Source of the DNA: a virus
Direction: 5' to 3' (one strand)
Length of the DNA stretch: 56,094 nucleotides
Virus record (IMG/VR): IMGVR_UViG_3300027607_000106
Span: 1-56,094 of that record
How positions within the stretch are numbered: the first letter of the stretch is position 1; each line of letters opens with the position of its first letter. A program made the position numbers and the translations under genes. Below the pieces are notes generated by a model. The model was not told the DNA's origin. It ran no database searches and saw only the letters and a list, made by a program, of their open reading frames with translations. Positions 28,831-56,094 of this stretch are shown piece by piece.

Positions 28831-29361
28831 TCAACGGTCAGGTCCGCTGACAATCTCCCCGATCGCGTCAGGCGGAAGCTCCACCTTGACGCCCGCGCAA
28901 TATGCCTTGATTTTGTTCCCAAGGTCAACCGAGACTTGGGCAATAAGTCCTTCGAGAGGATTTCCGTCCGCAATCCTGGCGATTGTGCCGGGATCGAGCC
29001 GCTTGCGGCCAACCTCGTCGACAGCCTGCCCCTCGGCCTCCTCCATGATCCGATCCATGATCTCATCGGGAAGTGGGACCGGGTCGCGGCCGGGCACGCT
29101 GATCACGGTAGAGACCCACAACGTGTCGTTGATCAGGCCTATCTCGAATGGTTCGCAGAGCACGAAGATGTACCGGTGGAAGCGCGGCACATCGCTCCAT
29201 GCGGCCATGAACCGGGCCTGCTTGATCGTTGTTCCGGGAACCCGGCGCCGTTTGCGCACACGAATGACTGGGAAGAAGGTCATAAACCCCTGCCGCCGCA
29301 ATTCGCGGTCCGCGCCGGCTTCGGCTTGCGGGTGAGTATGGACCGCATACCAGTTCTTCAT
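28831..29361 (-). CDS. NusG/RfaH-like transcription antiterminator
   Basis: A 176-residue protein. Residues 1-105 match the NusG N-terminal domain (NWYAVHTHPQAEAGADRELRRQGFMTFFP, then FHRYIFVLCEPFEIGLIND). Residues 128-168 form a KOW-like beta domain (PLEGLIAQVSVDLGNKIKAYC). It would bind RNA polymerase and change termination. It is the last gene of the early operon and immediately precedes the hairpin cluster and the late genes, the place lambda gives to Q, so I infer a late-gene regulator. It overlaps the preceding gene by 4 bases. Confidence 0.88.
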   Translation of the reverse strand: MKNWYAVHTHPQAEAGADRELRRQGFMTFFPVIRVRKRRRVPGTTIKQARFMAAWSDVPRFHRYIFVLCEPFEIGLINDTLWVSTVISVPGRDPVPLPDEIMDRIMEEAEGQAVDEVGRKRLDPGTIARIADGNPLEGLIAQVSVDLGNKIKAYCAGVKVELPPDAIGEIVSGPDR

Positions 29362-32028: not shown

Positions 32029-32588
32029 GAGCCCGCGCCCCCTGAGAAATTAACTACTTCAGTAGGTGTTGTATCCTCTTGGCTAGGTCTTTTGTCCCTG
32101 TCTATGTCCTTCTCTCTCTGCGACGTCGCGCGTACGAAACGCGTTTCATCATGCGTTTCATCATGCGTTTCAGGTGGCGTTTCATCCGCGTTTCGTTGGC
32201 GTTGCCGCCAGCGTTTCAGTCTATCGGCGTCCTTGTTTCGCTTGCTGACCTGAGTGCGTTTCCGCTCCCATGCTTCGATCGCCTTTTCGCAGACGACAGG
32301 ATGGTACAGTCGCCCATCAGTGCACTTGATCCAGCCCTGGAGCGCTGCGGTCCTGACCCTCTTCCACTTCGAACCGGCCTGGCTCAGGATCGCCAGCATC
32401 TTGTCATTGTCCGGCAAGGAACCCGCTGGCATCTGATGCCAGCTTTCCAGCCAGAGCGTCATCGCCGCGGCCTTCTCGTCGCCACTCGCGGTCAGCCACG
32501 TCTCGCTCGTCAGCAACCTGCGAATGTCGACCGGCATGAAGGGGAAGTCGCGGAGATCAAGATCGGCGTGAACAAGAGGCTCGGTCAT
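32025..32588 (-). CDS. DUF1376 replication protein
   Basis: A 187-residue protein starting MTEPLVHADLDLRDFPFMPVDIRRLL. The first 110 residues match DUF1376, a winged-helix-like domain found in phage replication initiators. The C-terminal region is basic, with a DET-PPET-HDET-HDET tract encoded by 12-bp DNA repeats that look like iterons. As in lambda O, the gene may contain the origin it binds. It is followed by helicase and primase genes. ATG 32588 has GGGAGG upstream; a TTG at 32597 is less likely. Confidence 0.82.
   Translation of the reverse strand: MTEPLVHADLDLRDFPFMPVDIRRLLTSETWLTASGDEKAAAMTLWLESWHQMPAGSLPDNDKMLAILSQAGSKWKRVRTAALQGWIKCTDGRLYHPVVCEKAIEAWERKRTQVSKRNKDADRLKRWRQRQRNADETPPETHDETHDETRFVRATSQREKDIDRDKRPSQEDTTPTEVVNFSGGAGS
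32141..32218 (-). repeat. Iteron-like 12-bp direct repeats (candidate replication origin)
   Basis: The 8-mer TGAAACGC (minus strand) occurs at 32141, 32153, 32165, 32177 and 32211 (plus-strand starts), with a one-mismatch copy at 32188. The first four are spaced exactly 12 bp apart. They lie inside the DUF1376 replication gene, like the lambda ori iterons inside O. Confidence 0.6.
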
Positions 32589-32818: not shown

Positions 32819-33003
32819 CGGATCACCTCGCCGAACAGGTTGCGCTCAGCCGGCGGGATGCGGCGGCGACCGTTCGCTGCCCATTGCAAGAGCATTGCAG
32901 CGAAGCCGAGTTGGCCGTTTATGCGCCGAATGCGGGCTTCGCGCAGAAGCGTCCGGCAGTAGAAGACCCGCATTTCCCTTTCATCAATGCCGACAGCAGT
33001 CAT
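32815..33003 (-). CDS. Small basic protein of unknown function
   Basis: ATG 33003 overlaps the C5-methyltransferase stop as ATGA, so the start is chosen there and not at 33090. The 62-residue product (MTAVGIDEREMRVFYCRTLL...) is arginine-rich and probably helical, with features of a small nucleic-acid-binding protein. No domain is recognised. Confidence 0.6.
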   Translation of the reverse strand: MTAVGIDEREMRVFYCRTLLREARIRRINGQLGFAAMLLQWAANGRRRIPPAERNLFGEVIR

Positions 33004-34922
33004 TCGGCTGCCTCCGCCTGCACCGCCATGTCGGCGCAGTTCGCCGCGACCAGCGCGCGGGCGATATCCGGACACACCGAGTTCCCACACATCCGGATCG
33101 CCGCCGTTTTGGTCATCCGGATTTCGGCCCCGTCCGCGTCGACGCCGCGATCGATGATGTAGGAATCCGGGAATCCCTGCGCCCGGAACAACTCGCGCGC
33201 CGTCAGCATGCGCATGCCGATGTCGACGATCTCGAATGGCTCGCCGCCCACCGTGACAAGCCCGAAACGAGGCTTTGCCGTGACGGTGTGCAGCGGGTCG
33301 CCCAGGTCCTGACCGATCGCAGAGCCGAAATACTTGATCAGGAACGCGCGGACCTCGGCCTGATGCCAGCCGCCTGCCGGGTGTCTAGACACCTGCGCCG
33401 GGGCGGGCGCGTCCGGCCCGCTCATCCGCCGATCGGATCCTTTCAGGTTGACCAGCCCGGCCGAGACGACGGCCTGGGTGCAGCCCTTCTGCACCACGGT
33501 CGAGACCGGCTTGCGCGCGTCATGTCCCGTGACGCCCGTGTTGTGCTGCGCCAGGAACGCCGCGACCACCCCGAGCGGCGGCGCGCCGCCCGGCCGCTTG
33601 ATGTAGCTGTTCGCCGTGACGGTCGGTGCCGGCTCGTCGATCGGAACACCCCCGGAGTCGCCGCGAAACTTCGCCAGATGCGGCGCGATCAGGATCTGAT
33701 CGGCCTTCGCCGTCAGGGTGTTCAGCGGCGCGTTGCCGGGCTTCGGCGGCGATTGCGCCGCACGGCCGCCGCATCCCGACAGCACCGGCGCGACAAGCGT
33801 ATGGCCGTTGCCGTTCGGCACGACCGTCGGCGACGGACCGGTCACGGCATGGGTGCGCGGCTCCTGTCCCGCCCGCTCGCCATATCGCGGCACCAGATAG
33901 GGCGCGACGAGCGCCTTTTCGCCCCGGTTCGCCCCGGTAACGGTGCGCAGCGGGTCATCTATCCGCTCGACGCGATCGCCGCCCTGATGGGTCAGGTTCG
34001 CCACGAACGGCTGCACAAAGGCATGCCGGTTTTCCGTGACGACGGTGCGCAGCGGCTGGTCAACGGCCGAACTGCGATCCGTGCCGCCGGCGCCCTCGCC
34101 ATAATAACTGACTATAAACGGCTCCGCCGCATCGATCACATAGCGCTTCACGCCCTTTGCAATCCTGGCCATCGTGTTCTCCGCCAAGGGCCTCTTGCAG
34201 CCGATCGCGCGGGCCTCCTCTTTCGTCAGGAAGATCGACGGACAGGGAATCGAGAAGTCGATCACGCTGTCCGCTGCGGTGCGATAGGGCAGCTTGCGGC
34301 CGGCCAGGACATCGGGATCGTCCGGCGCGCCATGCGTCGGCTTTGGCCAGATAATCGGGTGCCCGTCGCGCCGGGCGATAACGAACAGCCGTTTGCGGAT
34401 GGTCGGCGCGCCATAGTCGCAGGCCCGCAGTTCCCGCCACTCGACCTTGTATCCGAGCCGCTTCAGGTCCTTCACCCAGGCCGCGAAGGTCTGCCCGCGC
34501 CGGTCCGGACACGGCGCGAACCGCCCCGGCTCGCGTTCGGTGAGCGGCCCCCAATCGCGGAATTCCTCGACATTCTCCAGGATGATCACGCGGGGCCGAA
34601 CGCGGCGCGCCCAAAGGACGACGGTCCAGGCCAGATCACGGATATTCCGCTTGACCGGCTTGCCGCCCTTGGCCTTCGAGAAGTGCTTGCAATCCGGCGA
34701 GGCCCAGAGCAGCCCGACAGGCCGGTTGCCGACCAGATCGTCGGGATCGGCCTTCCATATGTTGCGCTCGACATGCAGGGTCTCGGGATGGTTTGCCCGA
34801 TGCATCGCGATCGCTTCGGCATCGTGGTTGATCGCGATATCAGGCGACCGGCCGAGCGCCATTTCGATGCCCGTCGATGCACCGCCCCCGCCGGCGAAGG
34901 AATCGATGATCAGTTCCATCAC
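33000..34922 (-). CDS. DNA cytosine-5 methyltransferase with repetitive target-recognition region
   Basis: A 640-residue C5-methyltransferase. Motif I is DSFAGGGGAS, motif IV ASPDCKHFS (Cys78 nucleophile), motif VI ENVEEF (116-121), motif VIII RKRLFV, and motifs IX-X lie at the C-terminus (TARELFRAQGFPDSY, GNSVCPDI). Residues 290-560 hold seven copies of a P-x-x-TV(V/T) repeat (PLRTVVTEN, PLRTVTGAN, SPTVVPNGN, PLNTLTAKA, APTVTANS, PVSTVVQKG, PLHTVTAKP), an unusually long recognition region. It may protect phage DNA from host nucleases. A PD-(D/E)XK-like nuclease gene overlaps its start. Confidence 0.93.
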   Translation of the reverse strand: MMELIIDSFAGGGGASTGIEMALGRSPDIAINHDAEAIAMHRANHPETLHVERNIWKADPDDLVGNRPVGLLWASPDCKHFSKAKGGKPVKRNIRDLAWTVVLWARRVRPRVIILENVEEFRDWGPLTEREPGRFAPCPDRRGQTFAAWVKDLKRLGYKVEWRELRACDYGAPTIRKRLFVIARRDGHPIIWPKPTHGAPDDPDVLAGRKLPYRTAADSVIDFSIPCPSIFLTKEEARAIGCKRPLAENTMARIAKGVKRYVIDAAEPFIVSYYGEGAGGTDRSSAVDQPLRTVVTENRHAFVQPFVANLTHQGGDRVERIDDPLRTVTGANRGEKALVAPYLVPRYGERAGQEPRTHAVTGPSPTVVPNGNGHTLVAPVLSGCGGRAAQSPPKPGNAPLNTLTAKADQILIAPHLAKFRGDSGGVPIDEPAPTVTANSYIKRPGGAPPLGVVAAFLAQHNTGVTGHDARKPVSTVVQKGCTQAVVSAGLVNLKGSDRRMSGPDAPAPAQVSRHPAGGWHQAEVRAFLIKYFGSAIGQDLGDPLHTVTAKPRFGLVTVGGEPFEIVDIGMRMLTARELFRAQGFPDSYIIDRGVDADGAEIRMTKTAAIRMCGNSVCPDIARALVAANCADMAVQAEAAE

Positions 34923-35617
34923 CGAATCATCTCCATCTGCTCCTGCGTCTGAACCGCGCGCGGCGCGGAAACATGCGCCCCGTCCGGTGTGTCGGCTTCA
35001 GGGAACGGCCGGCGCCGCAATTGCCGACACACCGCCTCGGCGATCTCGCGGCCCGTCATGTGCCAGGCCATCTGCCCGACGATCTCGCGGATCGGTGCAC
35101 GTCGCCCGTGCGCGACGCGGTTGCGCGTCGCCTCATCGACAAGCTCGGCGCGCCACAGCAGCGACAGCAGATCCCAAGCGCGCGGCTGCGCCATCTCCGG
35201 CCGGGGCATGCGCCAGGCGTAGTTCAGGTTGGCCCCGAATTCCTCGATCGTCGGGGCGGGATGGCACCACAGTTCAGGCCGGCGCGGCCCATTCATAACG
35301 CCCGCCAGATCCTCGGTTGGGCGCAGACCGTATTCGTATTCCTCGAACCACTTGCGATGGGCGACAACCACGACCTGGTGTGCCGCCTGCTGGAACGCCG
35401 CGACCTGTCCGGCCAGCCGGCTCAGCGTGTCCCGCTCCGATTTGATCTCGAACACCACCAACCGGTCGCGCCCCACGGCGGCGAGATCGACCCGCCGCTC
35501 GCCCATGACCAACTCATGCACCACCCGTGCGCCCTGCACGCCCGCAACGCCGCCCATCCGCCGGATGTGGCCGGCCACCGCATCGCGGATCTCCCGTTCG
35601 GCTGCCGAGCCCGGCAT
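34919..35617 (-). CDS. PD-(D/E)XK-like nuclease (sce7726/MmcB-type fold)
   Basis: ATG 35617 overlaps the preceding stop as TGATG, giving 232 residues. The core RRVDLAAVGRDRLVVFEIKSERDTLSRLAGQV is the D...E-x-K nuclease pattern (Asp in VDL, then Glu and Lys in FEIKS), followed by QQAAHQVVVVAHRKW. The C-terminal half is helical. Its ATGA coupling to the C5-methyltransferase raises the possibility of a restriction-like pair, but related nuclease-fold proteins are common alone in phages, so a repair or recombination role is equally possible. Confidence 0.72.
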   Translation of the reverse strand: MPGSAAEREIRDAVAGHIRRMGGVAGVQGARVVHELVMGERRVDLAAVGRDRLVVFEIKSERDTLSRLAGQVAAFQQAAHQVVVVAHRKWFEEYEYGLRPTEDLAGVMNGPRRPELWCHPAPTIEEFGANLNYAWRMPRPEMAQPRAWDLLSLLWRAELVDEATRNRVAHGRRAPIREIVGQMAWHMTGREIAEAVCRQLRRRPFPEADTPDGAHVSAPRAVQTQEQMEMIR

Positions 35618-35841
35618 CACTTGCCACCCCGCCGGTAGTATTCCTGCTCGGTGATCTCCGCGCAGGTAAACATGGACGCGATCTTCCGCTCCTCCGCTGC
35701 ATTGCGCGTACGGTGGCCGTTCTCGACGAGGAGCTTGTAATCCTCTGCCTGCTGGGTCGCCTCGCCCCAGGTATCGATCGCGGCCTGCTGCAGGTCGTCG
35801 TTGAGCTTCCGTTTCGGCGCCGGCCAGTCCTCGCGTTTCAT
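35617..35841 (-). CDS. Small charged protein of unknown function
   Basis: A 74-residue, highly charged helical protein (MKREDWPAPKRKLNDDLQQAAIDTWGEATQQAEDYKLL...). It starts by ATGA overlap with the amino-methyltransferase gene and ends by TGATG overlap with the nuclease gene. No family is recognised; it could be a nuclease partner. Confidence 0.65.
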   Translation of the reverse strand: MKREDWPAPKRKLNDDLQQAAIDTWGEATQQAEDYKLLVENGHRTRNAAEERKIASMFTCAEITEQEYYRRGGK

Positions 35842-36725
35842 TCGGCGGCTCCCGCGAACAATTCGGATTGCCGGTCCTCGGCATCGAGATAGCGGCAGGA
35901 CTGGCGCCAGTAGCTTTCCTTCAATTCGATGCCGATGAATTTTCGGGATTGCTTGAGCGCGACGACACCTTCGGAGCCGATCCCCATGAATGGCGACAGC
36001 ACAACATCACCCGGATTGCTCCAGAGCGTTATCGCGCGTTCAATCACGTCGAGTTGCAGCGGACACAAATGGCGCTCGTCCTGCGCCTCACGCGCCATCC
36101 TGACGTTCAGGACATTAGACTGATCAACTGTCATCCAAACCGGTGATGCCCATTCCTGCCATTGATCGAGCGGAAACTCGGTTGGCGTGTGAGCAATCGG
36201 CTCGGCATTGTCACCGGGCTTTACGAAGGTCAGCAGATAGTCGGGCATCCCGCCGCGCGACTTGGCGCTGTCCTTCTGCAGTTGCTTGTAAAGAAGGCCA
36301 ACATGCTTAGTCCGCGTCATCTCCGTGACCGGACACTTCCAGATGGTCCGGCGCCCGTGAAGTATCCAGCCAGCACGTCGGTGGATATCTATAATCTGAC
36401 CTGAGAAATCCTTTATGCCCACTGCCCCATCCCGCCACTTAGTCATTGGCAGGTCGGAACAGTGCACTGCCGTCAGGCGTCCTGGCTTTGTTACTCTGAG
36501 CTTCTCACCAACCAAGTACGCATAGTGGGCCGCGAATTCCTCGTCGGTAGAATTCCCCATGTCAGCTGCACTTTCCGAGTACACGAACAACGACCCAAAC
36601 GGAGGTGAATAGATCGAGAAATCGACGCTGTTTTCTGGAAACTGGCGGGCGATGTCGACGCAATCGCCGTGATAGGCCGCATACCGATCGTCATGCACCG
36701 CGTTCAGGCAACGGATCTCAGCCAT
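35838..36725 (-). CDS. DNA amino-methyltransferase (N4-cytosine or N6-adenine), beta-class order
   Basis: A 295-residue methyltransferase. Catalytic motif IV SPPF is at residues 40-43 and the SAM-binding motif I region LSPFMGIGSEG at 243-253 (motif IV before I, the beta-class order). FSIYSPPFGSLFVYS fits a group common in phages. SPP(W/Y/F) motifs occur in both N4-C and N6-A enzymes, so the modified base is undecided. There is no evident CcrM-type C-terminal domain. Its 5' end lies within the last 22 bases of the SNF2-like helicase gene, indicating tight co-expression. Confidence 0.9.
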   Translation of the reverse strand: MAEIRCLNAVHDDRYAAYHGDCVDIARQFPENSVDFSIYSPPFGSLFVYSESAADMGNSTDEEFAAHYAYLVGEKLRVTKPGRLTAVHCSDLPMTKWRDGAVGIKDFSGQIIDIHRRAGWILHGRRTIWKCPVTEMTRTKHVGLLYKQLQKDSAKSRGGMPDYLLTFVKPGDNAEPIAHTPTEFPLDQWQEWASPVWMTVDQSNVLNVRMAREAQDERHLCPLQLDVIERAITLWSNPGDVVLSPFMGIGSEGVVALKQSRKFIGIELKESYWRQSCRYLDAEDRQSELFAGAAE

Positions 36726-38095
36726 GCCGGCACCTCCGCTATGTGGTTTGGGTCGTAGGCAACCTTGAGGCCGGCAGTGCGACCAGTCGCCCGGCGCATG
36801 GCATCCCGCATGGCGGCCTTCATCTTCGCGTGATCATCTGCCTTGCGGTTGATCACGCGGCCGATCGTGTCTTCGCCCTCGGCAACGACGAGATCGACGA
36901 TGACGCGGCGTTTTTGGCCATAGCGCCAGCAGCGGCGCACCGCCTGATACCAGGTCTCATAGGAGTAAGTTCGGCCGACGAAGGCCATCCGAGCGCAATG
37001 CGACCAGTCGAGGCCGAACCCGCACATGCTCGGCTTGGCGATCAACGTCTTGATGTCGCCCGTCGAAAAGGCTTCGAGGATCCGTTCCTTCTCATCGATC
37101 GACATTGAGCCGCGGACTTCCGACGCATCGGGGACCGCGCGCTTCAGAACGTCGGCCTCGTAGTTCGTGTCGCACCAGATGATCCTGGTTTCTCCGGGCT
37201 CATCTGCAACGAGCTCGGCCATCCGCTCGGCCCGCGCTTCGCTCGTCTGCCGCTTGACGTCGTGCATGGACGTTGCGGACATGGACGGGGATCCGAACAG
37301 TCCGCCAAGACCCTGCTGCAGATCGCTCTCGGCTGCACGATGCGAGCGCACCTCAAAGGGCGGCAGGTCGTATCCATCATCGCTGTCGCCAAGGTCGGAT
37401 GGCTTCTCCGCCATCCGGGCCCAGGACGCCATCCAATCCCAAAAGGCAGTCTCGGCGTGGCCTTTCAGGCGCCACTTGTGCGAAGCAGTGGACGTGTCGT
37501 TGATGAAGAACCGCGACAACATTTCGTTTGTCGCCATCGTGCCGAGAAACTCGGCATAGTTTCCGATCTCCATGTGATCGTTGGGCGCCGGCGTTGCGGT
37601 GGCCGCGAGCTTGAACCGAACACCGCGGAACATCTCAATCAGCGCGCGCGTCGTCTTTCCGGTGAAGGACTTGAGGATCGATGCCTCATCCAGCGACACC
37701 ACATCGAAGGCGGACGGATCGATCTTGTCGAGCCGATCGTAGTTGCAGATGTTGATGCCGGACCCGACGTCGGACGGCTCACGAATGACTCGCGCCTCGT
37801 AGCCCCATCGGTCCGCGCGGCGCTTCGTTTGAGAGGCAACCGCGAGCGGCGTCAGGATCAGCGCCCGGCCATTCGTCGGCTCGATGGCACGCTGACAGAA
37901 CTCAAGCTGGACTTCCGTCTTGCCCAGGCCGGTATCCAGGAAGCAGCCGGCCGATCCAACGCGTAGGTGGTGCTCGACGCAAAGGGCCTGGAAGGGAAAC
38001 AGATGATCGGCAAGCTCCGGCACACGCTGCAGGCCTCTCTGCGGCACGGAGACGGCCTTCTGTCGCAGGAACTGGCGGTAGGCGTCCTGTGTCAC
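36704..38095 (-). CDS. SNF2-type SF2 helicase
   Basis: A 463-residue helicase/translocase: motif I DTGLGKTE, LTPLAVASQ, motif II SLDEASIL, motif III ATATPAPND, and C-terminal motifs GFGLDW and YQAVRRCWRYGQ, the SNF2-like VI pattern. Such proteins sit next to the amino-methyltransferase in many phages and may help it or clear DNA-bound proteins. It overlaps the MT-A70 gene by ATGA upstream and the methyltransferase gene by 22 bases downstream. Confidence 0.9.
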   Translation of the reverse strand: MTQDAYRQFLRQKAVSVPQRGLQRVPELADHLFPFQALCVEHHLRVGSAGCFLDTGLGKTEVQLEFCQRAIEPTNGRALILTPLAVASQTKRRADRWGYEARVIREPSDVGSGINICNYDRLDKIDPSAFDVVSLDEASILKSFTGKTTRALIEMFRGVRFKLAATATPAPNDHMEIGNYAEFLGTMATNEMLSRFFINDTSTASHKWRLKGHAETAFWDWMASWARMAEKPSDLGDSDDGYDLPPFEVRSHRAAESDLQQGLGGLFGSPSMSATSMHDVKRQTSEARAERMAELVADEPGETRIIWCDTNYEADVLKRAVPDASEVRGSMSIDEKERILEAFSTGDIKTLIAKPSMCGFGLDWSHCARMAFVGRTYSYETWYQAVRRCWRYGQKRRVIVDLVVAEGEDTIGRVINRKADDHAKMKAAMRDAMRRATGRTAGLKVAYDPNHIAEVPAWLRSVA

Positions 38096-38676
38096 TCTGC
38101 GGCCTCGACGAATTTGGTGGTTTCATTGCCGAACGTCTCAAAACCTGGATGCCCGGATCGGGCGAACAGTTCACATCGGGGACCGTCGAACATGTTTGCG
38201 ATCTGATCGCGGATAATGTCCGGCTTCCGGCTGTGCTCCCGGCGACGCGCGAAGAACAGGCTGCCCGGTTTCTTGCCTTCGATCGGCTGAACCCGGCCGC
38301 GCTTTGCAATCACCAGCAGTTCGCAGTTCCCGACAACCTCGTAACCGGTCCCGCGCGCCATGCTGTCGGGATAGATGAACATCTCGTCTTCGGACGGCCA
38401 GAGCTTCGCCCAGACGCGCGCGGTCGAATACCGGAAGCCCCACGGCTTCAGGACGTCCATTATGCGATGCAGCAGCGGCATCGTGATCCACAGGAACAGC
38501 CGGCAGCCGTCGGGATGCGCCAGGTCGCGGACCGGCAATCCGGCGATCTCGTCGATCGGCATTGTCGGGTAGTGCTTGCGCGGATTGCGCGACGGGCCGG
38601 ACGAGAACCGCCACGGCGGATCCGCGATGATCACGCGGTAGGCATGCGGCTCAAGCGGGGCGAAGGGCCAATTCAC
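38092..38676 (-). CDS. MT-A70 family adenine methyltransferase
   Basis: The GTG at 38676 (VNWPFAPLEPHAYRVIIADPPW) overlaps the GcrA-like stop as GTGA and has GGAGG 7 bases upstream, so it is preferred to ATGs within the GcrA-like gene. The 194-residue product carries the DPPW catalytic motif of MT-A70/Ime4-type N6-adenine enzymes and the matching FLWITMPLLHRIMDVLKPWGF and HSRKPDIIRDQI. Phage members modify DNA, often to evade restriction. It is coupled directly to the regulator that senses adenine methylation in alphaproteobacteria. Confidence 0.92.
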   Translation of the reverse strand: MNWPFAPLEPHAYRVIIADPPWRFSSGPSRNPRKHYPTMPIDEIAGLPVRDLAHPDGCRLFLWITMPLLHRIMDVLKPWGFRYSTARVWAKLWPSEDEMFIYPDSMARGTGYEVVGNCELLVIAKRGRVQPIEGKKPGSLFFARRREHSRKPDIIRDQIANMFDGPRCELFARSGHPGFETFGNETTKFVEAAE

Positions 38677-39236
38677 TCTGCGGCCTCCAAAGCCTGCATC
38701 CATTCGGGATACGCGATGCGGCAATGGTGCTCGCAATAGGGAACGCCCTCACCTGACCGGCGGCCGCAGAAATGAAAACCCGGCAGCCCGGGATCGCCGA
38801 TCGGCCATTTGCAGGTGGTCTCGTCGAGCTCGAGAACGGACAGCCGCTTAACCGGCTCCGGCGGGTCAGCAGGATCCGGCGGAAGATGGAACGGCGCGTC
38901 GTCGAGCGGCGGCGCGTCGGGAGGGCGGGCAGCGACGGCGGCGATCGAGACCGTCTTTGATGCCGGGCCGCACGAGCCAAGCGAATCCCTGTTCGGGACC
39001 GATACGGCCTGCGGCGTGATGGCAGGTGGTTTCTTGGCGCGCGCGCGCCGGGGCGTGCGCGATTTGGTCGACCGGCGGAAGCCCAGATTCGTATGTCTGA
39101 CCAGCTTGAGCCGCGTCGCCTTCCCGATGACAGCGTTCCGCGTGACACCGCCGAGTTCCTTCGCGATCTGGCTGGCGCTATGGCCCTCACACCACAGCTT
39201 CTTGAGCAACTCAACCCGTTCGTCGGTCCAGGTCAT
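38673..39236 (-). CDS. GcrA-like cell-cycle regulator
   Basis: A 187-residue protein. Residues 1-50 are the GcrA DNA-binding domain (WTDERVELLKKLWCEGHSASQIAKELG, TRNAVIGKATRL). A proline-rich linker follows, and residues 140-185 match the GcrA C-terminal sigma70-binding region (CKWPIGDPGLPGFHFCG, PYCEHHCRIAYPEW). In Caulobacter-type bacteria GcrA recruits sigma70 holoenzyme at promoters with methylated GANTC. A phage copy could redirect host transcription or use phage methylation marks. It overlaps the CtrA-domain gene by ATGA and the MT-A70 gene by GTGA. Confidence 0.93.
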   Translation of the reverse strand: MTWTDERVELLKKLWCEGHSASQIAKELGGVTRNAVIGKATRLKLVRHTNLGFRRSTKSRTPRRARAKKPPAITPQAVSVPNRDSLGSCGPASKTVSIAAVAARPPDAPPLDDAPFHLPPDPADPPEPVKRLSVLELDETTCKWPIGDPGLPGFHFCGRRSGEGVPYCEHHCRIAYPEWMQALEAAE

Positions 39237-39796
39237 GCGGCAGCCACCCCAGTCAATTCGGAGGCCGAAGGCAGCCGCCCGCGAATGGCCGCGATTGCAT
39301 CCGGCCCCATTGAGTAACCGCGACCCCAGACGGTATCGATCTCAATCCCAAACGGACTGAGCTTCTTGCGCGCTTTGCAGACGAAGACATCGACGATCTT
39401 TGGATTGCTGGCTGGGAGACCGTGATCCGCGATAGCAGTATGCAGTGTCGCCTTGCCGACGACGTTGCCGTGCCGCATCAGTGCTGCCACCAAGCGGCTT
39501 TCGGACTTTGTTAGTTGGAAGGCTCCCATCAGTTCATCACAGATGCCGTCAACATCGGTGGGCCTTGATGGCTTCCCTGTCGGCAAGCGGTCTTCGCGGC
39601 GCGCACCTATCGGCCAATCCACAGCGGGAACGCTGATAAGATGACCGGCATCGCGAGCGTTACTCACGACATCCTGAACATCGTCAAACGGCCGTCGTAG
39701 GATCCGGCAGATTGCGCGTATCGGAATACCCTCATCGGCTGCTCGGATGACAACGTGGTTGCTGACGGGGGCCCGGTAGTCTGAATTGGTTGTCAT
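39233..39796 (-). CDS. Regulator with a CtrA-type winged-helix domain and a new N-terminus
   Basis: ATG 39796 overlaps the upstream stop as ATGA. The 187-residue protein has an HTH-like N-terminus (IRAADEGIPIRAICRILRRPFDDVQDVV), then residues 94-163 nearly match the CtrA output domain: LTKSESRLVAALMRHGN, NPKIVDVFVCKARKKL and IDTVWGRGY. There is no receiver domain and no phosphorylatable aspartate, so it would act without the CckA phosphorelay. It may compete with host CtrA at its sites or control phage genes. It is directly coupled to the GcrA-like gene. Confidence 0.85.
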   Translation of the reverse strand: MTTNSDYRAPVSNHVVIRAADEGIPIRAICRILRRPFDDVQDVVSNARDAGHLISVPAVDWPIGARREDRLPTGKPSRPTDVDGICDELMGAFQLTKSESRLVAALMRHGNVVGKATLHTAIADHGLPASNPKIVDVFVCKARKKLSPFGIEIDTVWGRGYSMGPDAIAAIRGRLPSASELTGVAAA

Positions 39797-39927
39797 GACG
39801 CCACGCTCCCCTCGATAAGCACCAGCCACCAAATGAAAAGAAATGCGCCTAAGCACGCAGTGCCCCACAAACAGATCGACCAGAAGCGGCGGCGGTCGTC
39901 GGATGGCCAGAGATCGCGATCACGCAT
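39793..39927 (-). CDS. Small single-helix membrane protein
   Basis: ATG 39927 gives 44 residues: a charged start (MRDRDLWPSDDRRRFW) and one hydrophobic helix (ICLWGTACLGAFLFIWWLVL). It overlaps the RuvC-like stop by 8 bases and the CtrA-domain gene by ATGA. The function is unknown; it may be a membrane tether or a small regulator. The longer frame from 40011 would run inside the resolvase gene and is not favoured. Confidence 0.6.
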   Translation of the reverse strand: MRDRDLWPSDDRRRFWSICLWGTACLGAFLFIWWLVLIEGSVAS

Positions 39928-40558
39928 CGCCGTACTCCGCTGCTTCAGAGAAAAGGTTCGGCCCGTGTCTGCGCAGCGCGCCGGCGGGCAGGTTTCCGCC
40001 TTGGGCGGCAAGCCAGATGGCTACGCCGAGGCTGTCTGCCGCGTCATGATTGGGGACCGCAAAGCCGTAGCGGAGCGCGAGGTCGCCGGCGTGCTTCCGC
40101 ATCTCCGCCTTGAACCAGTTCTCTTCCGTGCCCTTTGGCCGGCGCCCTCTTCCTAGAACCGCTTTCCGCCAAGTAGCCGACGGAACGGACACCGGGCGTG
40201 CTCCGAAGGCTATCAAGATCGCGCGGGCGGACGCGTACATGCGGTTCTGCATGACGAACGTTTTGGGGTTGCCATCAAGGACCTTGCGCTTGCGTCCGTT
40301 CCTATCGACGATCTCCTTCATGGGCACCGTCTCCATCGGCCGTTCGATCGCCGATCGGCTCACCCGCCGCCCGCGCGCCTTGCAGTCCCGCAGGAAGCCC
40401 CGCAGATGCTCTGCCAGCAGGTCGGCCTTCTCGTCGGCGCCCTGTCCTTCAAACGACCACGACCCGCATTCAATCTCCGGCGCGATCAAGGACGCACCGT
40501 CGGTCCACAGGGTGAAGCCTGAGCGTGACGCAAGATCTAAAGCTAGGAGGGTCCGCAT
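39920..40558 (-). CDS. RuvC-like Holliday junction resolvase
   Basis: A 212-residue protein with the RNase-H-fold pattern of RuvC-type resolvases: MRTLLALDLASRSGFTLW (first acidic residue), RSAIERPM (second), then FAVPNHDAADSLGVAIWLAA (last two aspartates). It would cut branched DNA formed during replication and recombination before packaging. The middle of the protein is basic (DRNGRKRKVLDG). It starts the stretch that contains the regulators and methyltransferases. Confidence 0.88.
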   Translation of the reverse strand: MRTLLALDLASRSGFTLWTDGASLIAPEIECGSWSFEGQGADEKADLLAEHLRGFLRDCKARGRRVSRSAIERPMETVPMKEIVDRNGRKRKVLDGNPKTFVMQNRMYASARAILIAFGARPVSVPSATWRKAVLGRGRRPKGTEENWFKAEMRKHAGDLALRYGFAVPNHDAADSLGVAIWLAAQGGNLPAGALRRHGPNLFSEAAEYGDA

Positions 40559-41573: not shown

Positions 41574-42086
41574 CTACGGGTTGGCGTCGCGCGCTTCGAT
41601 CTCTGTGAACGCGTGATGGATCTCGCTCGCGATCGCGATCAGATCGCGGAACTCTTCCTTCAGCCTGAGCTCGCGGACTTCTTCGGGCGTGATCTTGCCG
41701 TCACGCGCGGCCGTGGCGAGCGCAGACAGCGCTTCACTGCTTTCCTTCGCCGTCGCGACAATGCGCTCGGTCCAAGCTGGGTCGCCAGTGCCCGCAGGCG
41801 CCATCGGCAACAGCACGTAGCCGGCCAGCGTCGCCAACTCGCGCGTCACGATCGGCGCGCCTGCATCGGCCTCGAGATCGGCGATCACATCGACGGGGAT
41901 GAAGTTCGGATCGTCAGCCTTGCCGTAGCGGCTCAGGCTCTGGAAGCTGGCACGGGTGACGGACGCCGCCGATTCCAGACCGCCCGATCGGGTGATCAGA
42001 CGCCGAACGGCAGCCTTCAATGTCAGATAAACAGAGGCGCCGTGCGGACGACCCAAGCAACCGGTTCCCGTCCCCTCGCCGCTCAT
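41574..42086 (-). CDS. Phage regulatory protein CII, CP76 family
   Basis: A 170-residue protein with the CP76-type pattern: LTLKAAVRRLITRSGGLESAASVTRASFQSLSRYGK, then PNFIPVDVIADLEADAGAPIVTRELATLAGYVLLP. A mixed helical C-terminus carries IVATAKESSEALSALATAARDGKITPEEVREL. Such proteins activate lysogeny promoters or early genes in the P2/CP76 group. GGGGAA lies 8 bases before ATG 42086. It is encoded after the tRNA and the structured stretch, in the early operon. Confidence 0.8.
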   Translation of the reverse strand: MSGEGTGTGCLGRPHGASVYLTLKAAVRRLITRSGGLESAASVTRASFQSLSRYGKADDPNFIPVDVIADLEADAGAPIVTRELATLAGYVLLPMAPAGTGDPAWTERIVATAKESSEALSALATAARDGKITPEEVRELRLKEEFRDLIAIASEIHHAFTEIEARDANP

Positions 42087-42408: not shown

Positions 42409-42484
42409 TGGTAGCGGGGGGCGGACTCGAACCGCCGACCTCCTGGTTATGAGCCAGGTGAGCTACCGTCTGCTCTACCCCGCG
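42409..42484 (-). tRNA. tRNA-Met(CAT), initiator-like, CCA encoded
   Basis: A complete 76-base cloverleaf with anticodon loop CTCATAA. Initiator traits are the C1-U72 mismatch at the acceptor end and A11-U24 in the D stem. The anticodon stem CCTGG/CCAGG has two of the three G-C pairs typical of initiators. The T arm GGCGG-TTCGAGT-CCGCC and the 3' CCA are present. It lies in the early operon between small genes. A plain elongator tRNA-Met is less likely, given C1-U72 and A11-U24. Confidence 0.93.
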
Positions 42485-42660: not shown

Positions 42661-42867
42661 TCACACCAGCCCCCGATCGATCGCGAGCCATTCGGGCATG
42701 GTGATGACGGCGCAATCCCCCGCATCGATCGAAACGTCGATCTGCGATAGTGGAAGCCAAACCGCGCTGTCCGCATCGCCGTCATCCGAAACGAAGATCG
42801 CCCGATCGCACCGGTCGTGGACCAGCACATGGACATCAACCAGTTCGGACTGGCCGGCCTCGCTCAT
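42661..42867 (-). CDS. Small conserved phage protein
   Basis: A 68-residue acidic protein (MSEAGQSELVDVHVLVHDR...DSAVWLPLSQID...VITMPEWLAIDRGLV). The VWLPLSQ and ITMPEWLA motifs recur in small proteins of alphaproteobacterial prophages, whose role is unknown. It starts by ATGA overlap with the YdaS/Cro-like gene and lies before the tRNA. Confidence 0.72.
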   Translation of the reverse strand: MSEAGQSELVDVHVLVHDRCDRAIFVSDDGDADSAVWLPLSQIDVSIDAGDCAVITMPEWLAIDRGLV

Positions 42868-43136
42868 TCCGCCGCCTCGACCGGTTGCGCGGGCGCGGCC
42901 TGTTGACCGTCGCCCGCGCCGGGTGCCGCCTGCGGGGCTGGATAGATATCGGGGCGGAGCTCGTGACGCGGCACGCCCGTGGCGGCTTCAATCGAGAGGA
43001 CGAACTGGGCCGAAACTCCCTTCTTCGACCTCGATAGCCAATACCAAACTTGAGATTGGGTGGTGCCGATCAACGTAGCGAGCGGCTTTTGACCGCCTGC
43101 CACTTCCACTGCTTTTTCGAGGGCCGAGATGCTCAT
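42864..43136 (-). CDS. YdaS/Cro-like transcriptional regulator
   Basis: A 90-residue protein with a helix-turn-helix of the YdaS/Cro type (LEKAVEVAGGQKPLATLIGTTQSQVWYWLSRSKKGVSA, then AATGVPRHELRPDIYP) and a disordered Ala/Pro-rich C-terminus. It is the first gene of the leftward early operon and is transcribed away from the S24 repressor gene, the Cro position. It should repress the repressor promoter and tune early transcription. The leader overlaps the operator sites. Confidence 0.88.
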   Translation of the reverse strand: MSISALEKAVEVAGGQKPLATLIGTTQSQVWYWLSRSKKGVSAQFVLSIEAATGVPRHELRPDIYPAPQAAPGAGDGQQAAPAQPVEAAE

Positions 43137-43148
43137 ATGAAGAAAATC

Positions 43149-43213
43149 ACTAATTTTTTGGTATTAGTCAACCAAAAAATCTGTACCTGCGGCGATACCT
43201 AATTATTGGTACT
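43149..43213. promoter_or_regulatory. Divergent early promoter/operator region
   Basis: Arms ATTTTTTGGT (43153-43162) and ACCAAAAAAT (43171-43180) form a perfect 10-bp inverted repeat. A further site with core TACCAATAATTAG (minus strand) lies at 43198-43213, by the repressor start. Between the arms, TTGACT (minus, 43171-43166) is a -35 for leftward transcription. The WACCAA core recurs at 45205 and 45228, so these are probable repressor/Cro operators. Confidence 0.7.
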
Positions 43214-43222
43214 GTCCATCGC

Positions 43223-44011
43223 ATGTCGGTTTTGGGCAAAAGAATCGCAGATCGGCTGATCGATCTTGGTCATGGGAAGGGCGGTCAAACTTGGCTGGCC
43301 AATCAAGTCGGCATGCGGCAACAAGGGATCCAGGCAATAATCGCAGGTCGGTCCGAGCGGCCTCGAAAGCTCCGGGAAATAGCCGCAGCGCTTGACACCA
43401 CTCAGGATTATCTCCTTGGCGACACGGATGACCCAGCGCTTCCTCACGAACGAACCCATGGCCCCAATCCGGAGGACGAAACGGCCGGGTTCCGAGAGCC
43501 CGATAGCGACTTTGGCTACGATGCTTACAAACGAGAATCCTATCAGCCGAAAATACCTGGCGCCCTCCCCGAGCTGGACGCGGTACCCGGAGCTGGTGAG
43601 GACGCGGTAGGCGATTTCGTCGCCATACAGGTTGGAGGCGAAACCGGGATCGGTCACGCGGTCACGGCCGAATGGTACTTTCCGCCCGAATACCTTCGGA
43701 GCGAGGCCAAGGTCGCGCCGAACCACACGATCGTGATGCCAGTCGTCGGCGACAGCATGATCCCGACCTATCAGCCAGGCGACCGGGTGCTCGTCGATCT
43801 AACGCAGAACGAATTGGTCGCGGACTCCACCGTCTACGTCATCTCCGATGGCCAAAGCCCGCCGCAGATCAACCGGTTGACCCGTATCCTTTTCAGCGAC
43901 CCGCCGGAAGTGGACATCATTTCGGACAACGTCGATCAGGCGAAACAGCGCGTTGAGCTTGATCGGTTGGTGATCATCGGCCGCGTGTGCGGCCTGGTGG
44001 CGAGACGGTGA
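43223..44011 (+). CDS. C2/CI-type prophage repressor with S24 domain lacking the usual lysine
   Basis: A 262-residue protein. Residues 1-66 are a helix-turn-helix (ADRLIDLGHGKGGQTWLANQVGMRQQGIQAIIAG), and residues 130-260 are a LexA-like S24 domain with PVVGDSMIPTYQPGDRVLVD (Ser178). The catalytic lysine expected in the V-K-R position is replaced (QINRLTR, Asn217), so RecA-stimulated self-cleavage may be lost. It should hold the early promoters shut in the lysogen. It is read divergently from the YdaS/Cro-like gene. Confidence 0.93.
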   Translation: MSVLGKRIADRLIDLGHGKGGQTWLANQVGMRQQGIQAIIAGRSERPRKLREIAAALDTTQDYLLGDTDDPALPHERTHGPNPEDETAGFREPDSDFGYDAYKRESYQPKIPGALPELDAVPGAGEDAVGDFVAIQVGGETGIGHAVTAEWYFPPEYLRSEAKVAPNHTIVMPVVGDSMIPTYQPGDRVLVDLTQNELVADSTVYVISDGQSPPQINRLTRILFSDPPEVDIISDNVDQAKQRVELDRLVIIGRVCGLVARR

Positions 44012-44054: not shown

Positions 44055-44360
44055 ATGCCGGAAAGCAACACAGATGCTAAACGGAAACTGACAAAGCTGA
44101 CAGAAAATCAGCTTAACGCGTTTTTTGCTGCAAAAGCCCCACTTAAGAACTGCCCTTCATGCGGCGAGTTTAAATACACAATTCAGACAGAATGGAAAGA
44201 TGGGCAAACACCAGGAATATTCTTATACGATCCAGTGCTTGGCATGGTCAACTCTTCGATGTTTCCTGTAGTACTATTGATGTGCAATAACTGCGGTTAC
44301 ATCAGGAGTTATTCTCGATTTCTAATAGAGGATTGGGTTCGAGAAAACGATGTCAAATAA
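44055..44360 (+). CDS. AT-rich zinc-ribbon protein (cargo gene)
   Basis: A 101-residue protein starting MPESNTDAKRKL, with two CxxC knuckles (CPSCGEF and CNNCGYI) separated by about 50 residues, probably one zinc ribbon. It lies just after the repressor, is AT-rich, and overlaps the next gene by 11 bases, so the two are co-expressed from the lysogen. I recognise no named family. A role in lysogenic conversion or exclusion is inferred. Confidence 0.7.
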   Translation: MPESNTDAKRKLTKLTENQLNAFFAAKAPLKNCPSCGEFKYTIQTEWKDGQTPGIFLYDPVLGMVNSSMFPVVLLMCNNCGYIRSYSRFLIEDWVRENDVK

Positions 44361-45165: not shown

Positions 45166-45204
45166 GAGCGCGGTGACCCGCCCTACAAATTCGTAAGCCA
45201 CTAA

Positions 45205-45248
45205 CTACCAATTTTTTTGTTGACTGACTACCAATTTATTTGTAGTTT
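45205..45248 (+). promoter_or_regulatory. Rightward early promoter with two operator repeats
   Basis: Two 16-bp direct repeats, CTACCAATTTTTTTGT (45205-45220) and CTACCAATTTATTTGT (45228-45243), flank TTGACT (45220-45225). A weak -10 (TAGTTT, 45243) follows at 17 bases. The layout mirrors the leftward promoter at 43149-43180, so both are probably shut by the same repressor. Confidence 0.68.
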
Positions 45249-45280: not shown

Positions 45281-45673
45281 ATGTCATCCCTTTCCGACCG
45301 GACCTTCTATTTCGTCCTCGCCCGCACCAATGGGCGGAACAGCGTGGAGTTTTCGCGCGAACTGGATGAGCCGACGGATCGCGCGGCGACGTTCGATCTG
45401 GTCAAGGAAATGGCCAATGACGGCTACGAGATCATCACCATTTCCGCCTTCAACCCGCATGAGGGCCACGCGCAGGACATCACCGAGGACTTTGCCCGCG
45501 AGTGGCTGGCCGAACTGACCGCCGAGGGTCACCGGTTCGATCTCGAGTTCCCGCCGTTCATCGAAAGCGCGATCGGCCTTGGCGATGCCGAGCAGATCCG
45601 CCGCGAGTGCGAAGCCAGCGCCGAGGAAGATCGCCGGGAGACGGCCCTCATGGTCGGAGGGGTCGCGGCATGA
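45281..45673 (+). CDS. First gene of the rightward operon, unknown function
   Basis: A 130-residue acidic protein (MSSLSDRTFYFVLARTNGRNSVEFSREL...). It begins just after the repeat-containing promoter, with GGAG 9 bases upstream. No domain is recognised; the mixed alpha/beta pattern and DITEDFAREWLAEL suggest a compact cytoplasmic protein. As the first early gene it may act against host functions. Confidence 0.7.
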   Translation: MSSLSDRTFYFVLARTNGRNSVEFSRELDEPTDRAATFDLVKEMANDGYEIITISAFNPHEGHAQDITEDFAREWLAELTAEGHRFDLEFPPFIESAIGLGDAEQIRRECEASAEEDRRETALMVGGVAA

Positions 45674-54993: not shown

Positions 54994-56094
54994 ATGGCGG
55001 CGCGGGTGGCTCTGGTCAATTTCCCGAAAGTGAAGAAGTACAAGAGCCGTCACGGTCGAATCTATTTCTACCATCGCCCGACCGGAACACGACTTCCCGA
55101 CGACCCTACGACGCCAGAGTTCGCCGAGGCCTACGCCCGGGCTGAAAAGCAAGGCCAGTCCAAGCCGGACACCCCATTGCAAGATGGGAAACGCCCGAAG
55201 TTTCCGCATGGAAGCTTCGGCGCTGTCGTCGAGGAGTTCATCGCATCAGGCGAGTTCAAGGACCTGAAGCCATCCACAAAGTACGAATACCAGCGCGTCC
55301 TGCGCAGCCTTGCCGATGCCGGGCATGGCAACAAGCCAATCCGGATGATGCAGCGGCGGCATGTCCGGAAGATGCGCGACGAGCGCGCGGACACGCCAGG
55401 TGCCGCAAACACCGTCGTGCGCCACGTCCGCCGGCTGCTGAGCTTCGCTGTCGAGGAGGAGTATCGGGCCGACAACCCCGCGCTCAGATTGAAGCTTCTG
55501 AAGGTGGGAGAATGGCGCGCGTGGACGGACGAGGAGCAATCCGCGTTCGAGGCCCGATGGCCATCCGGTTCGATGGAACGACGCGCCTATTCGCTCGCCC
55601 TGTATACCGGTCAGCGCCGCGCTGATCTGGTGTCCATGACGCAGGCGGATCGAAAGTCCGGCGCGATCTGTGTCGTGCAGAGCAAGACCGACGAGCGATT
55701 GTGGGTTCCCGAGCACCCCACCCTTTCGGAGGAACTCCGCGCGATCGACCACATGAGCTTGCTCTACACCTCGAAAGGCAAGGCGTTCGATCCGGTCTAT
55801 TTCGGAGCATGGTTCGCAGAAGCGATCGACAAAGCCAAGCTGCCGGATGATTGCGTGCTGCACGGCCTCCGGGCGTCCGCGGCGACACGCCTCGCCGATG
55901 CCGGATGCGACGACAAGGACATCATGGCGATCACCGGTCACCAGTCGCCGCAGATGGTGAAGAAATACACCAAGGCAGCGGATCAAAAGAAGCGCGCCGA
56001 GAGCGCCATGCAGAAGGTAAAAAGGTTAGACGCTGGCCGGAAAGCGGCATTGAAAAACAACGACAAATCCGGATCGGCGAAAACCCGAGGTTAG
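54994..56094 (+). CDS. int: Tyrosine integrase
   Basis: A 366-residue tyrosine recombinase. After an N-terminal arm-binding region, a core-binding domain spans about 75-155 (FGAVVEEFIASGEFKDLKPSTKYEY). The catalytic domain has Arg208 (TGQRRADLV), Lys231 (SKTDE), His290 and Arg293 (LHGLRASAA), His316 (TGHQS) and the Tyr325 nucleophile (KKYTK). All six expected residues are present. The stop TAG is the last base triplet of the window, so attP or attR would lie just outside it. Confidence 0.96.
   Translation: MAARVALVNFPKVKKYKSRHGRIYFYHRPTGTRLPDDPTTPEFAEAYARAEKQGQSKPDTPLQDGKRPKFPHGSFGAVVEEFIASGEFKDLKPSTKYEYQRVLRSLADAGHGNKPIRMMQRRHVRKMRDERADTPGAANTVVRHVRRLLSFAVEEEYRADNPALRLKLLKVGEWRAWTDEEQSAFEARWPSGSMERRAYSLALYTGQRRADLVSMTQADRKSGAICVVQSKTDERLWVPEHPTLSEELRAIDHMSLLYTSKGKAFDPVYFGAWFAEAIDKAKLPDDCVLHGLRASAATRLADAGCDDKDIMAITGHQSPQMVKKYTKAADQKKRAESAMQKVKRLDAGRKAALKNNDKSGSAKTRG

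What the first reader, a model, noticed from the sequence alone, without database searches (positions are those of the whole stretch)
38092..39796. Phage carries coupled GcrA-like and CtrA-type regulators joined to an MT-A70 methyltransferase
Three genes overlap by ATGA/GTGA: a protein with the CtrA output domain, a GcrA-like protein with both its DNA-binding and sigma70-binding ends, and an adenine methyltransferase. In the host, CtrA, GcrA and the adenine methylase CcrM form the cell-cycle circuit. A phage cassette with a counterpart of each part could redirect sigma70 to phage promoters by phage-made marks, or hold the host at a chosen cell-cycle stage. The gene content is seen directly; the circuit is inferred.
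Basis: partly seen in the sequence, partly recalled or inferred. Interest (0 to 1): 0.85.

Follow-up and report, generated by a model that had tools for sequence, protein, structure and literature searches.

The report
Phage operon with GcrA- and CtrA-type regulators
A virus of alphaproteobacteria carries, in one tightly packed early operon, its own versions of two host cell-cycle regulators (GcrA and the DNA-binding half of CtrA) next to a DNA methylase; the genes are real and the regulator pair recurs in other phages, but nothing here shows that they form a working methylation circuit.

Summary
On the minus strand, 38092-39796 holds a receiver-less CtrA-type winged-helix protein, a GcrA homologue with both the DNA-binding and sigma70-binding ends, and an MT-A70 methyltransferase, overlapping by ATGA and GTGA. 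They sit inside a longer overlapping early operon of a lambdoid temperate phage. Phage GcrA, phage CtrA-type domains and phage adenine methylases are each known. The adjacency recurs in other alphaproteobacterial phages: CtrA-type next to GcrA in both gene orders, and all three genes abutting in one other phage. I found no paper on the combination. Three results cut against the proposed closed circuit. The methylase is MT-A70, not the CcrM family. A related phage has GcrA and MT-A70 but no CtrA-type gene. The 94%-identical block these phages share holds the sigma-binding end plus the methylase, but not the DNA-reading end. The phage also lacks CtrA boxes. My reading: phage GcrA is an extra, phage-timed sigma70 co-activator, probably reading host CcrM (GANTC) marks. 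The CtrA-type protein is a phosphorylation-independent DNA binder, and MT-A70 is most simply one of three modification enzymes in the operon. New variant of a known kind.

The parts
39233..39796 (-). CtrA-type regulator without receiver: N-terminal helix-turn-helix (about residues 13-49) plus C-terminal CtrA-type winged helix (about residues 82-163)
   Evidence: Pfam Trans_reg_C 1.8e-10; AlphaFold model pLDDT 91-98 in most of the wing domain, best PDB matches are OmpR/PhoB-family DNA-binding domains; tree separates it and host CtrA from 17 other host OmpR-type paralogues
38673..39236 (-). GcrA homologue, full length
   Evidence: Pfam GcrA 8.4e-45; phmmer to Caulobacter GcrA 7ye1 2.7e-31, to the DNA-binding domain 5yiu and to the sigma-interacting domain 5yix
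39102..39236 (-). GcrA DNA-binding domain (residues 1-45)
   Evidence: matches PDB 5yiu residues 5-48, E=6e-16; 79% nt identity to L002
38676..38861 (-). GcrA sigma70-interacting domain
   Evidence: matches PDB 5yix (GcrA chain of a GcrA/sigma complex), E=2e-14; dN/dS 0.05 against L002
38092..38676 (-). MT-A70 methyltransferase, DPPW motif, GTG start overlapping the gcrA stop
   Evidence: Pfam MT-A70 6.5e-22; 95% aa identity to L002; dN/dS 0.13
38092..38861 (-). block shared at 94% nt identity with phage contig L002: sigma-binding end of GcrA plus whole MT-A70; most sequence around it unrelated
39793..39938 (-). small membrane-peptide gene directly upstream; in L002 its homologue abuts gcrA with no CtrA-type gene between
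36704..38095 (-). SNF2-type helicase, overlaps the MT-A70 stop by GTGA
   Evidence: Pfam Helicase_C 2.2e-8, phrog_62 1e-57
35838..36725 (-). N6_N4-type DNA methylase with SPPF motif (SPPF suggests m4C)
   Evidence: Pfam 1.6e-18; weak partial match to CcrM 6pbd, 1.5e-10 over 48 residues
33000..34922 (-). C5-type DNA methylase in the same operon
   Evidence: phrog_116 5.9e-102
41574..42086 (-). CII-like regulator near the start of the leftward early operon
   Evidence: phrog_101 2e-17
42864..43136 (-). Cro/YdaS-like repressor gene; the cI-like repressor 43223-44011 is divergent
   Evidence: Pfam YdaS 1.3e-17; phrog_4 4.6e-30

Best explanation
The genes are part of the leftward early operon of a lambdoid temperate phage of a CcrM/GcrA-bearing alphaproteobacterium. 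After induction or infection the phage makes its own GcrA. Its C-terminal end binds host sigma70 region 2, and its DNA-binding end, nearly the same as that of Caulobacter GcrA, most likely recognises GANTC sites methylated by host CcrM. This gives sigma70-dependent transcription of replication-type genes and of selected phage promoters outside the host's cell-cycle timing. The receiver-less CtrA-type protein is a second DNA-binding regulator with a CtrA-like recognition helix that cannot be controlled by the host phosphorelay. It sets, or blocks, a subset of promoters independently of CtrA phosphorylation. MT-A70 is most simply one of three phage modification enzymes in the operon (C5, probable m4C, adenine), protecting phage DNA, and not a needed partner of GcrA. 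Shown: gene content, domains, coupling, purifying selection, recurrence. Inferred: binding partners, target sites, timing, function.
For: GcrA match over its full length, including the solved sigma-binding domain. The sigma-binding end has dN/dS 0.05. Phage GcrA proteins are diverse and outside the host GcrA clade, yet 51 of 73 keep the sigma-binding signature. The CtrA-type domain sides with host CtrA against 17 other host OmpR-type paralogues and belongs to a broad phage radiation; no receiver domain. GANTC is the most depleted of 16 XYNY'X' motifs in the window (0.25 of expected), in host-family DNA (0.31) and in GcrA-phage loci (0.26), as expected for a phage of CcrM hosts. CtrA-type genes lie next to or near GcrA in L007, L123, L128, L137, L080, L091 and L039, in both orders. 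In L007, L091 and L123 the pair sits in the same helicase/N6_N4-methylase early region, with a different CtrA-type version in each.
Against: No binding data of any kind. The window has no TTAAN7TTAA site even with one mismatch (0 found, 2.45 expected), so canonical CtrA boxes are not in the phage and the CtrA-type target is unknown. GANTC sites are not concentrated in the uncovered (mostly intergenic) part: 21 of 79 in 20% of the sequence. Most phage GcrA loci have no CtrA-type gene within about 5 kb (57 of 65), so the two can work apart.
Confidence: 0.45

Rival explanations
1. Closed writer-reader circuit: MT-A70 puts an adenine mark on phage (or host) promoters, phage GcrA reads it and brings sigma70, and the CtrA-type protein provides the opposing or timing input.
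For: GcrA and MT-A70 abut here, in L002 and in L148; all three genes abut in L148 and lie within about 2 kb in L137; the sigma-binding end and MT-A70 moved or were kept as one block.
Against: The phage reader is nearly identical to Caulobacter's, which reads GANTC. Only 5 of 65 GcrA loci have MT-A70 within 1 kb. MT-A70 is not the CcrM family, and its specificity is unknown.
Confidence: 0.15
2. Phage-only middle/late promoter switch: the CtrA-type protein and GcrA act together on phage promoters, as MotA and AsiA do in T4, with changed DNA specificity and no role for methylation or the host cycle.
For: Early-operon position after cro and cII; recurring neighbour pair in many phages; no CtrA boxes in the phage, so specificity may have changed.
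Against: Recognition helix and wing are close to CtrA's and the GcrA DNA-binding domain is close to the host type; no shared promoter motif was found; a NusG-like antiterminator (28831-29361) could drive late genes instead.
Confidence: 0.22
3. Chance neighbours: separately acquired early accessory genes that sit together because this operon slot accepts cargo; no functional link between the three.
For: L002 has the slot without the CtrA-type gene; versions differ between phages; the enrichment among GcrA neighbours is modest (Trans_reg_C 4 of 105 neighbours against at most 1 of 148 distant genes); recurring gene-end sequence GAGGCCGCAGAGTGA at 38092 and 38673 could serve as an exchange joint.
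Against: Where both occur in one ~11 kb locus they are clustered: 6 of 8 GcrA-anchored and 6 of 13 CtrA-anchored pairs lie within 1 kb, about 19% expected if uniform, and all of these are on the same strand.
Confidence: 0.13
4. MT-A70 is an RNA-directed or non-specific methylase with no part in promoter control.
For: A prophage MT-A70 enzyme of E. coli prefers 16S rRNA when paired with a second subunit (PMC10810198); solved-structure relatives include METTL3-type and mRNA m6A enzymes.
Against: Best PHROG (phrog_359) is annotated DNA methyltransferase and the PADLOC match is Type II methyltransferase; the other methylases of the operon are DNA-type families.
Confidence: 0.05

Closest known systems
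phiCbK-like phage GcrA (gp222; Gill et al. 2012, PMC3556154)
   Same: phage-encoded member of the GcrA family, proposed to alter host cell-cycle gene expression
   Different: lone gene in large lytic phages; no abutting CtrA-type gene or MT-A70 described
GcrA genes of Sinorhizobium prophages (PMC12429752) and of Brucella phage Y17 (PMC11836647)
   Same: GcrA-like genes in phages or prophages of alphaproteobacteria
   Different: only listed in annotation tables, no neighbouring CtrA-type gene discussed
Phage receiver-less CtrA-type proteins: Roseobacter phage RDJL Phi 1 'ctrA', Rhodobacter capsulatus phages, Paracoccus phage vB_PmaS-R3
   Same: CtrA-type winged helix without receiver
   Different: the annotated neighbourhoods I opened name no GcrA; their N-terminal regions differ from the window protein
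Phage methylases with CcrM-like GANTC specificity (PhiLM21 and others, PMC5537653)
   Same: adenine methylase in a phage replication module, thought to mimic host regulation
   Different: NPPY/F/W-type enzymes of known GANTC specificity; the window enzyme is MT-A70 (DPPW), specificity unknown
Host CtrA acting on phage promoters (lytic deferment, PMC9437464)
   Same: CtrA-dependent control of alphaproteobacterial phages
   Different: there the host CtrA acts on phage sites; here the phage has no such sites and brings its own CtrA-type protein
T4 MotA/AsiA sigma appropriation (reviewed in PMC7403470)
   Same: DNA-binding protein plus sigma-binding protein redirect host RNA polymerase
   Different: unrelated proteins; AsiA remodels sigma region 4, GcrA binds region 2

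Membership tests
GcrA (PF07750) | N-terminal DNA-binding domain | tested here: met
   matches PDB 5yiu, 6e-16; Pfam full-length match
GcrA (PF07750) | C-terminal sigma70-interacting domain with CKWP...FCG...YC..H signature | tested here: met
   matches PDB 5yix, 2e-14; signature present
GcrA (PF07750) | binds sigma70 and methylated GANTC DNA | not testable with these tools
   needs protein and DNA assays
CtrA | CtrA-type output domain (KIIDVFICKLRKKL helix, TVWGRGY wing) | tested here: met
   KIVDVFVCKARKKL and TVWGRGY; tree side with host CtrA against 17 other OmpR-type paralogues, few columns, rough support
CtrA | receiver domain with phosphorylatable Asp | tested here: not met
   only Trans_reg_C matched above its cut-off; N-terminal part is a short helix-turn-helix
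CtrA | CtrA boxes TTAAN7TTAA in the presumed target genome | tested here: not met
   0 in the window even with one mismatch; 2.45 expected. Host genome not tested
CcrM | N6_N4_Mtase (beta-class) family member related to CcrM 6pbd | tested here: not met
   gene at 38092-38676 matches MT-A70 only
CcrM | methylates GANTC | not testable with these tools
   needs a methylome or protection assay
MT-A70 (PF05063) | MT-A70 domain with DPPW catalytic motif | tested here: met
   E=6.5e-22 over residues 13-185; IIADPPW in the sequence

The most novel reading that the evidence does not exclude
Alphaproteobacterial phages repeatedly assemble, in an early-operon slot, a portable counterpart of the host cell-cycle core: a GcrA, a phosphorelay-blind CtrA-type protein and an adenine methylase. 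Together these work as a phage-made promoter-marking and sigma70-redirecting circuit independent of host cell-cycle phase.
Probability: 0.2. Interest if true: 0.85.

Novelty: new variant of a known kind. Interest (0 to 1): 0.55.

Why it matters
If the pair works as its sequence suggests, phages carry ready-made, signal-blind copies of the two main transcription inputs of the alphaproteobacterial cell cycle. That would make it testable whether phages uncouple replication-type transcription from cell-cycle phase, and would give small natural parts (sigma-binding end, DNA-reading end, receiver-less CtrA) for dissecting GcrA and CtrA function. The recurring GcrA plus CtrA-type neighbourhood was not found described in the library searched.

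Tried and rejected
Search for close relatives of the CtrA-type protein in IMG/VR with the single sequence: none; reached only with an alignment. Near-identical DNA in phage records: none. CtrA boxes as targets in the window: none. Three TTAA at 44113-44170 are in a low-G+C coding-looking stretch, not spaced as sites. Repeats in the other gene-poor regions gave no shared operator-like motif. Idea that the phage pair was captured from adjacent host genes: rejected, the regulator next to host gcrA is PhoB-like, not CtrA (L185). Idea that the N6_N4 methylase of the operon is the CcrM counterpart: only a weak partial match to CcrM, and an SPPF motif. The Chelatococcus relative of MT-A70 (L174, 70% identity) has neither GcrA nor a CtrA-type gene in 16.5 kb. 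The paper with GcrA contact residues (PMC5887438) is not held. Neighbour tally caveat: for L128 and L007 I put in the abutting CtrA-type reading frame by hand where my gene caller had chosen another frame, so 2 of the 4 Trans_reg_C counts depend on that.
Full report
What the window is. The window is an IMG/VR virus record of 56,094 bases. It has the layout of a lambdoid temperate phage: terminase, capsid and tape-measure genes on the left, a CI-like repressor at 43223-44011 (+), a Cro/YdaS-like gene at 42864-43136 (-), a CII-like gene at 41574-42086 (-) and an integrase at 54994-56094 (+). The finding lies in the leftward early operon.

The observation. The three genes are present as described. 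The CtrA-type protein (39233-39796) matches Trans_reg_C at 1.8e-10, the GcrA (38673-39236) matches the GcrA family at 8.4e-45 over nearly its full length, and the methylase (38092-38676) matches MT-A70 at 6.5e-22. Their overlaps are ATGA and GTGA. The same kind of overlap joins a membrane-peptide gene upstream and a SNF2-type helicase downstream, so the trio is a stretch of a longer coupled operon, followed by an N6_N4-type methylase with an SPPF motif (which from general knowledge suggests m4C), a nuclease-like protein and a C5 methylase.

GcrA. The phage protein aligns to Caulobacter GcrA over both domains with solved structures: the DNA-binding domain (5yiu, 6e-16) and the sigma-interacting domain (5yix, 2e-14), and to the full protein at 2.7e-31. 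By my count of the alignment, 35 of the first 45 residues are identical. In a tree of 101 proteins it lies outside the host GcrA group (93/76), among diverse phage GcrA proteins, 51 of 73 of which keep the Cys/His sigma-binding signature. It is therefore most likely a phage-lineage GcrA, not a fresh host copy.

CtrA-type protein. It has no receiver. An AlphaFold model (mean pLDDT 79.6) shows an N-terminal helix-turn-helix and a C-terminal winged helix whose best solved matches are OmpR/PhoB-family DNA-binding domains (the best E-value is 4.5e-3, with probability 1.00). The recognition helix KIVDVFVCKARKKL and wing TVWGRGY match CtrA closely. In a tree of 100 winged-helix domains, 17 other OmpR-type proteins of one host genome fall on one side of a branch, and host CtrA, the window protein and most phage proteins on the other. 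With 85 columns that tree is rough. The N-terminal part is shared with phage proteins in L015, L016 and partly L040.

Methylase. It is MT-A70 with DPPW, not the family of CcrM. Its specificity is unknown. A prophage MT-A70 enzyme of E. coli was reported to prefer 16S rRNA with a partner subunit (PMC10810198), so DNA as substrate is likely but not shown. Phage methylases of CcrM-like GANTC specificity are known in phage replication modules but are of another type (PMC5537653).

A near relative that separates the parts. Contig L002 shares 94% nucleotide identity with the window over 771 bases, 38092-38861: the sigma-binding end of GcrA plus the whole methylase, ending at the methylase stop codon. 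The DNA-binding end is 79% identical, the linker differs, and the CtrA-type gene is absent: the membrane-peptide homologue abuts gcrA directly. In L002 the next gene of recognisable kind after MT-A70 is a DnaB-like helicase by inspection of its sequence, not the SNF2 helicase. Selection on the block is purifying (dN/dS 0.05 for the sigma-binding end; 0.13 for MT-A70; 0.28 for the DNA-binding end). Here it does not.

Recurrence elsewhere. From the IMG/VR scans I kept 65 non-redundant GcrA-anchored and 61 CtrA-type-anchored loci. CtrA-type genes lie within 1 kb of GcrA in 6 of the 8 GcrA-anchored loci that have one at all, and GcrA within 1 kb in 6 of 13 CtrA-anchored loci, where about 19% would be expected if positions were uniform. 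Pairs occur in both orders: GcrA first in L007, L123, L080, L091; CtrA-type first in the window, L128, L137. All three genes abut in L148 in another order (CtrA-type, MT-A70, GcrA) and lie within about 2.6 kb in L137; L056 and L082 hold all three within about 3.5 kb. L091 and L080 carry a full-length CtrA with receiver after the GcrA-like gene (receiver judged from the sequence). In L007, L091 and L123 the pair sits in the same helicase plus N6_N4-methylase early region as in the window. Among 105 immediate neighbours of phage GcrA the commonest Pfam families were N6_N4 methylase (5) and, tied with one other, Trans_reg_C (4), with MT-A70 in 2. Among 148 distant genes of the same loci, N6_N4 methylase had 3, and Trans_reg_C and MT-A70 were not among the families listed, so at most 1 each. 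The enrichment is in the expected direction but modest, two of the four Trans_reg_C counts depend on frames I chose by hand, and most phage GcrA genes have no CtrA-type neighbour.

Sites. The window has no TTAAN7TTAA even with one mismatch (2.45 expected). GANTC is the most depleted of 16 comparable motifs (79 against 315 expected), as it is in host-family DNA and in other GcrA phages. This fits a phage of CcrM hosts but says nothing about phage regulation. GANTC is not concentrated outside the called genes.

Judgement. The GcrA most likely acts as a phage-timed sigma70 co-activator that can read host CcrM marks. The CtrA-type protein is a phosphorylation-blind DNA binder of unknown targets. 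The methylase is most simply one of three phage modification enzymes. The three-part circuit is possible but the relative L002 and the family assignment of the methylase speak against it. Phage GcrA (PMC3556154, PMC12429752, PMC11836647) and phage CtrA-type domains are known separately. A full-text search found no paper that mentions both MT-A70 and GcrA, and searches for GcrA with CtrA and phage terms returned none that I saw describe the pair; the library holds only open-licence papers.

Noticed in passing
42409-42484 (-): A tRNA-Met (CAT) gene lies inside the phage early region between the cro-like and cII-like genes.
   Followed up: no
32141-32220: Iteron-like direct repeats (GCGTTTCATCAT, 3-4 copies) in a gene-free stretch of the early operon, between the C5 methylase and the DEAD helicase/primase genes: a possible replication origin.
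   Followed up: no
45200-45243 and 43137-43222: Repeated operator-like sequence (ACTAACTACCAATTTTTTTGT) upstream of the gene at 45281 resembles the cI-cro intergenic region, so one repressor may control both.
   Followed up: partly
38092, 38673: The gene-end sequence GAGGCCGCAGAGTGA (ending EAAE-stop and overlapping the next GTG start) occurs at two successive junctions; similar EAAE ends occur at 33000 and 42864. It may act as a joint for gene exchange.
   Followed up: partly
28831-29361 (-): NusG-like phage antiterminator, a candidate for late-gene control.
   Followed up: no
L091:5260-6402, L080:5578-6525: Phage contigs that encode a full-length CtrA (receiver plus output domain plus a C-terminal extension) overlapping a GcrA-like gene upstream.
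   Followed up: partly
L042, L043, L045, L046, L048, L049, L055, L060, L075: Related prophage contigs in which a coiled-coil plus CtrA-type winged-helix gene overlaps a gene of about 540-650 codons with a C-terminal MT-A70 domain (in L043 apparently after a ParB-like region).
   Followed up: no
34919-35884 (-): The nuclease-like gene after the N6_N4 methylase matches a PADLOC model named cll (1e-15) and phrog_984.
   Followed up: no
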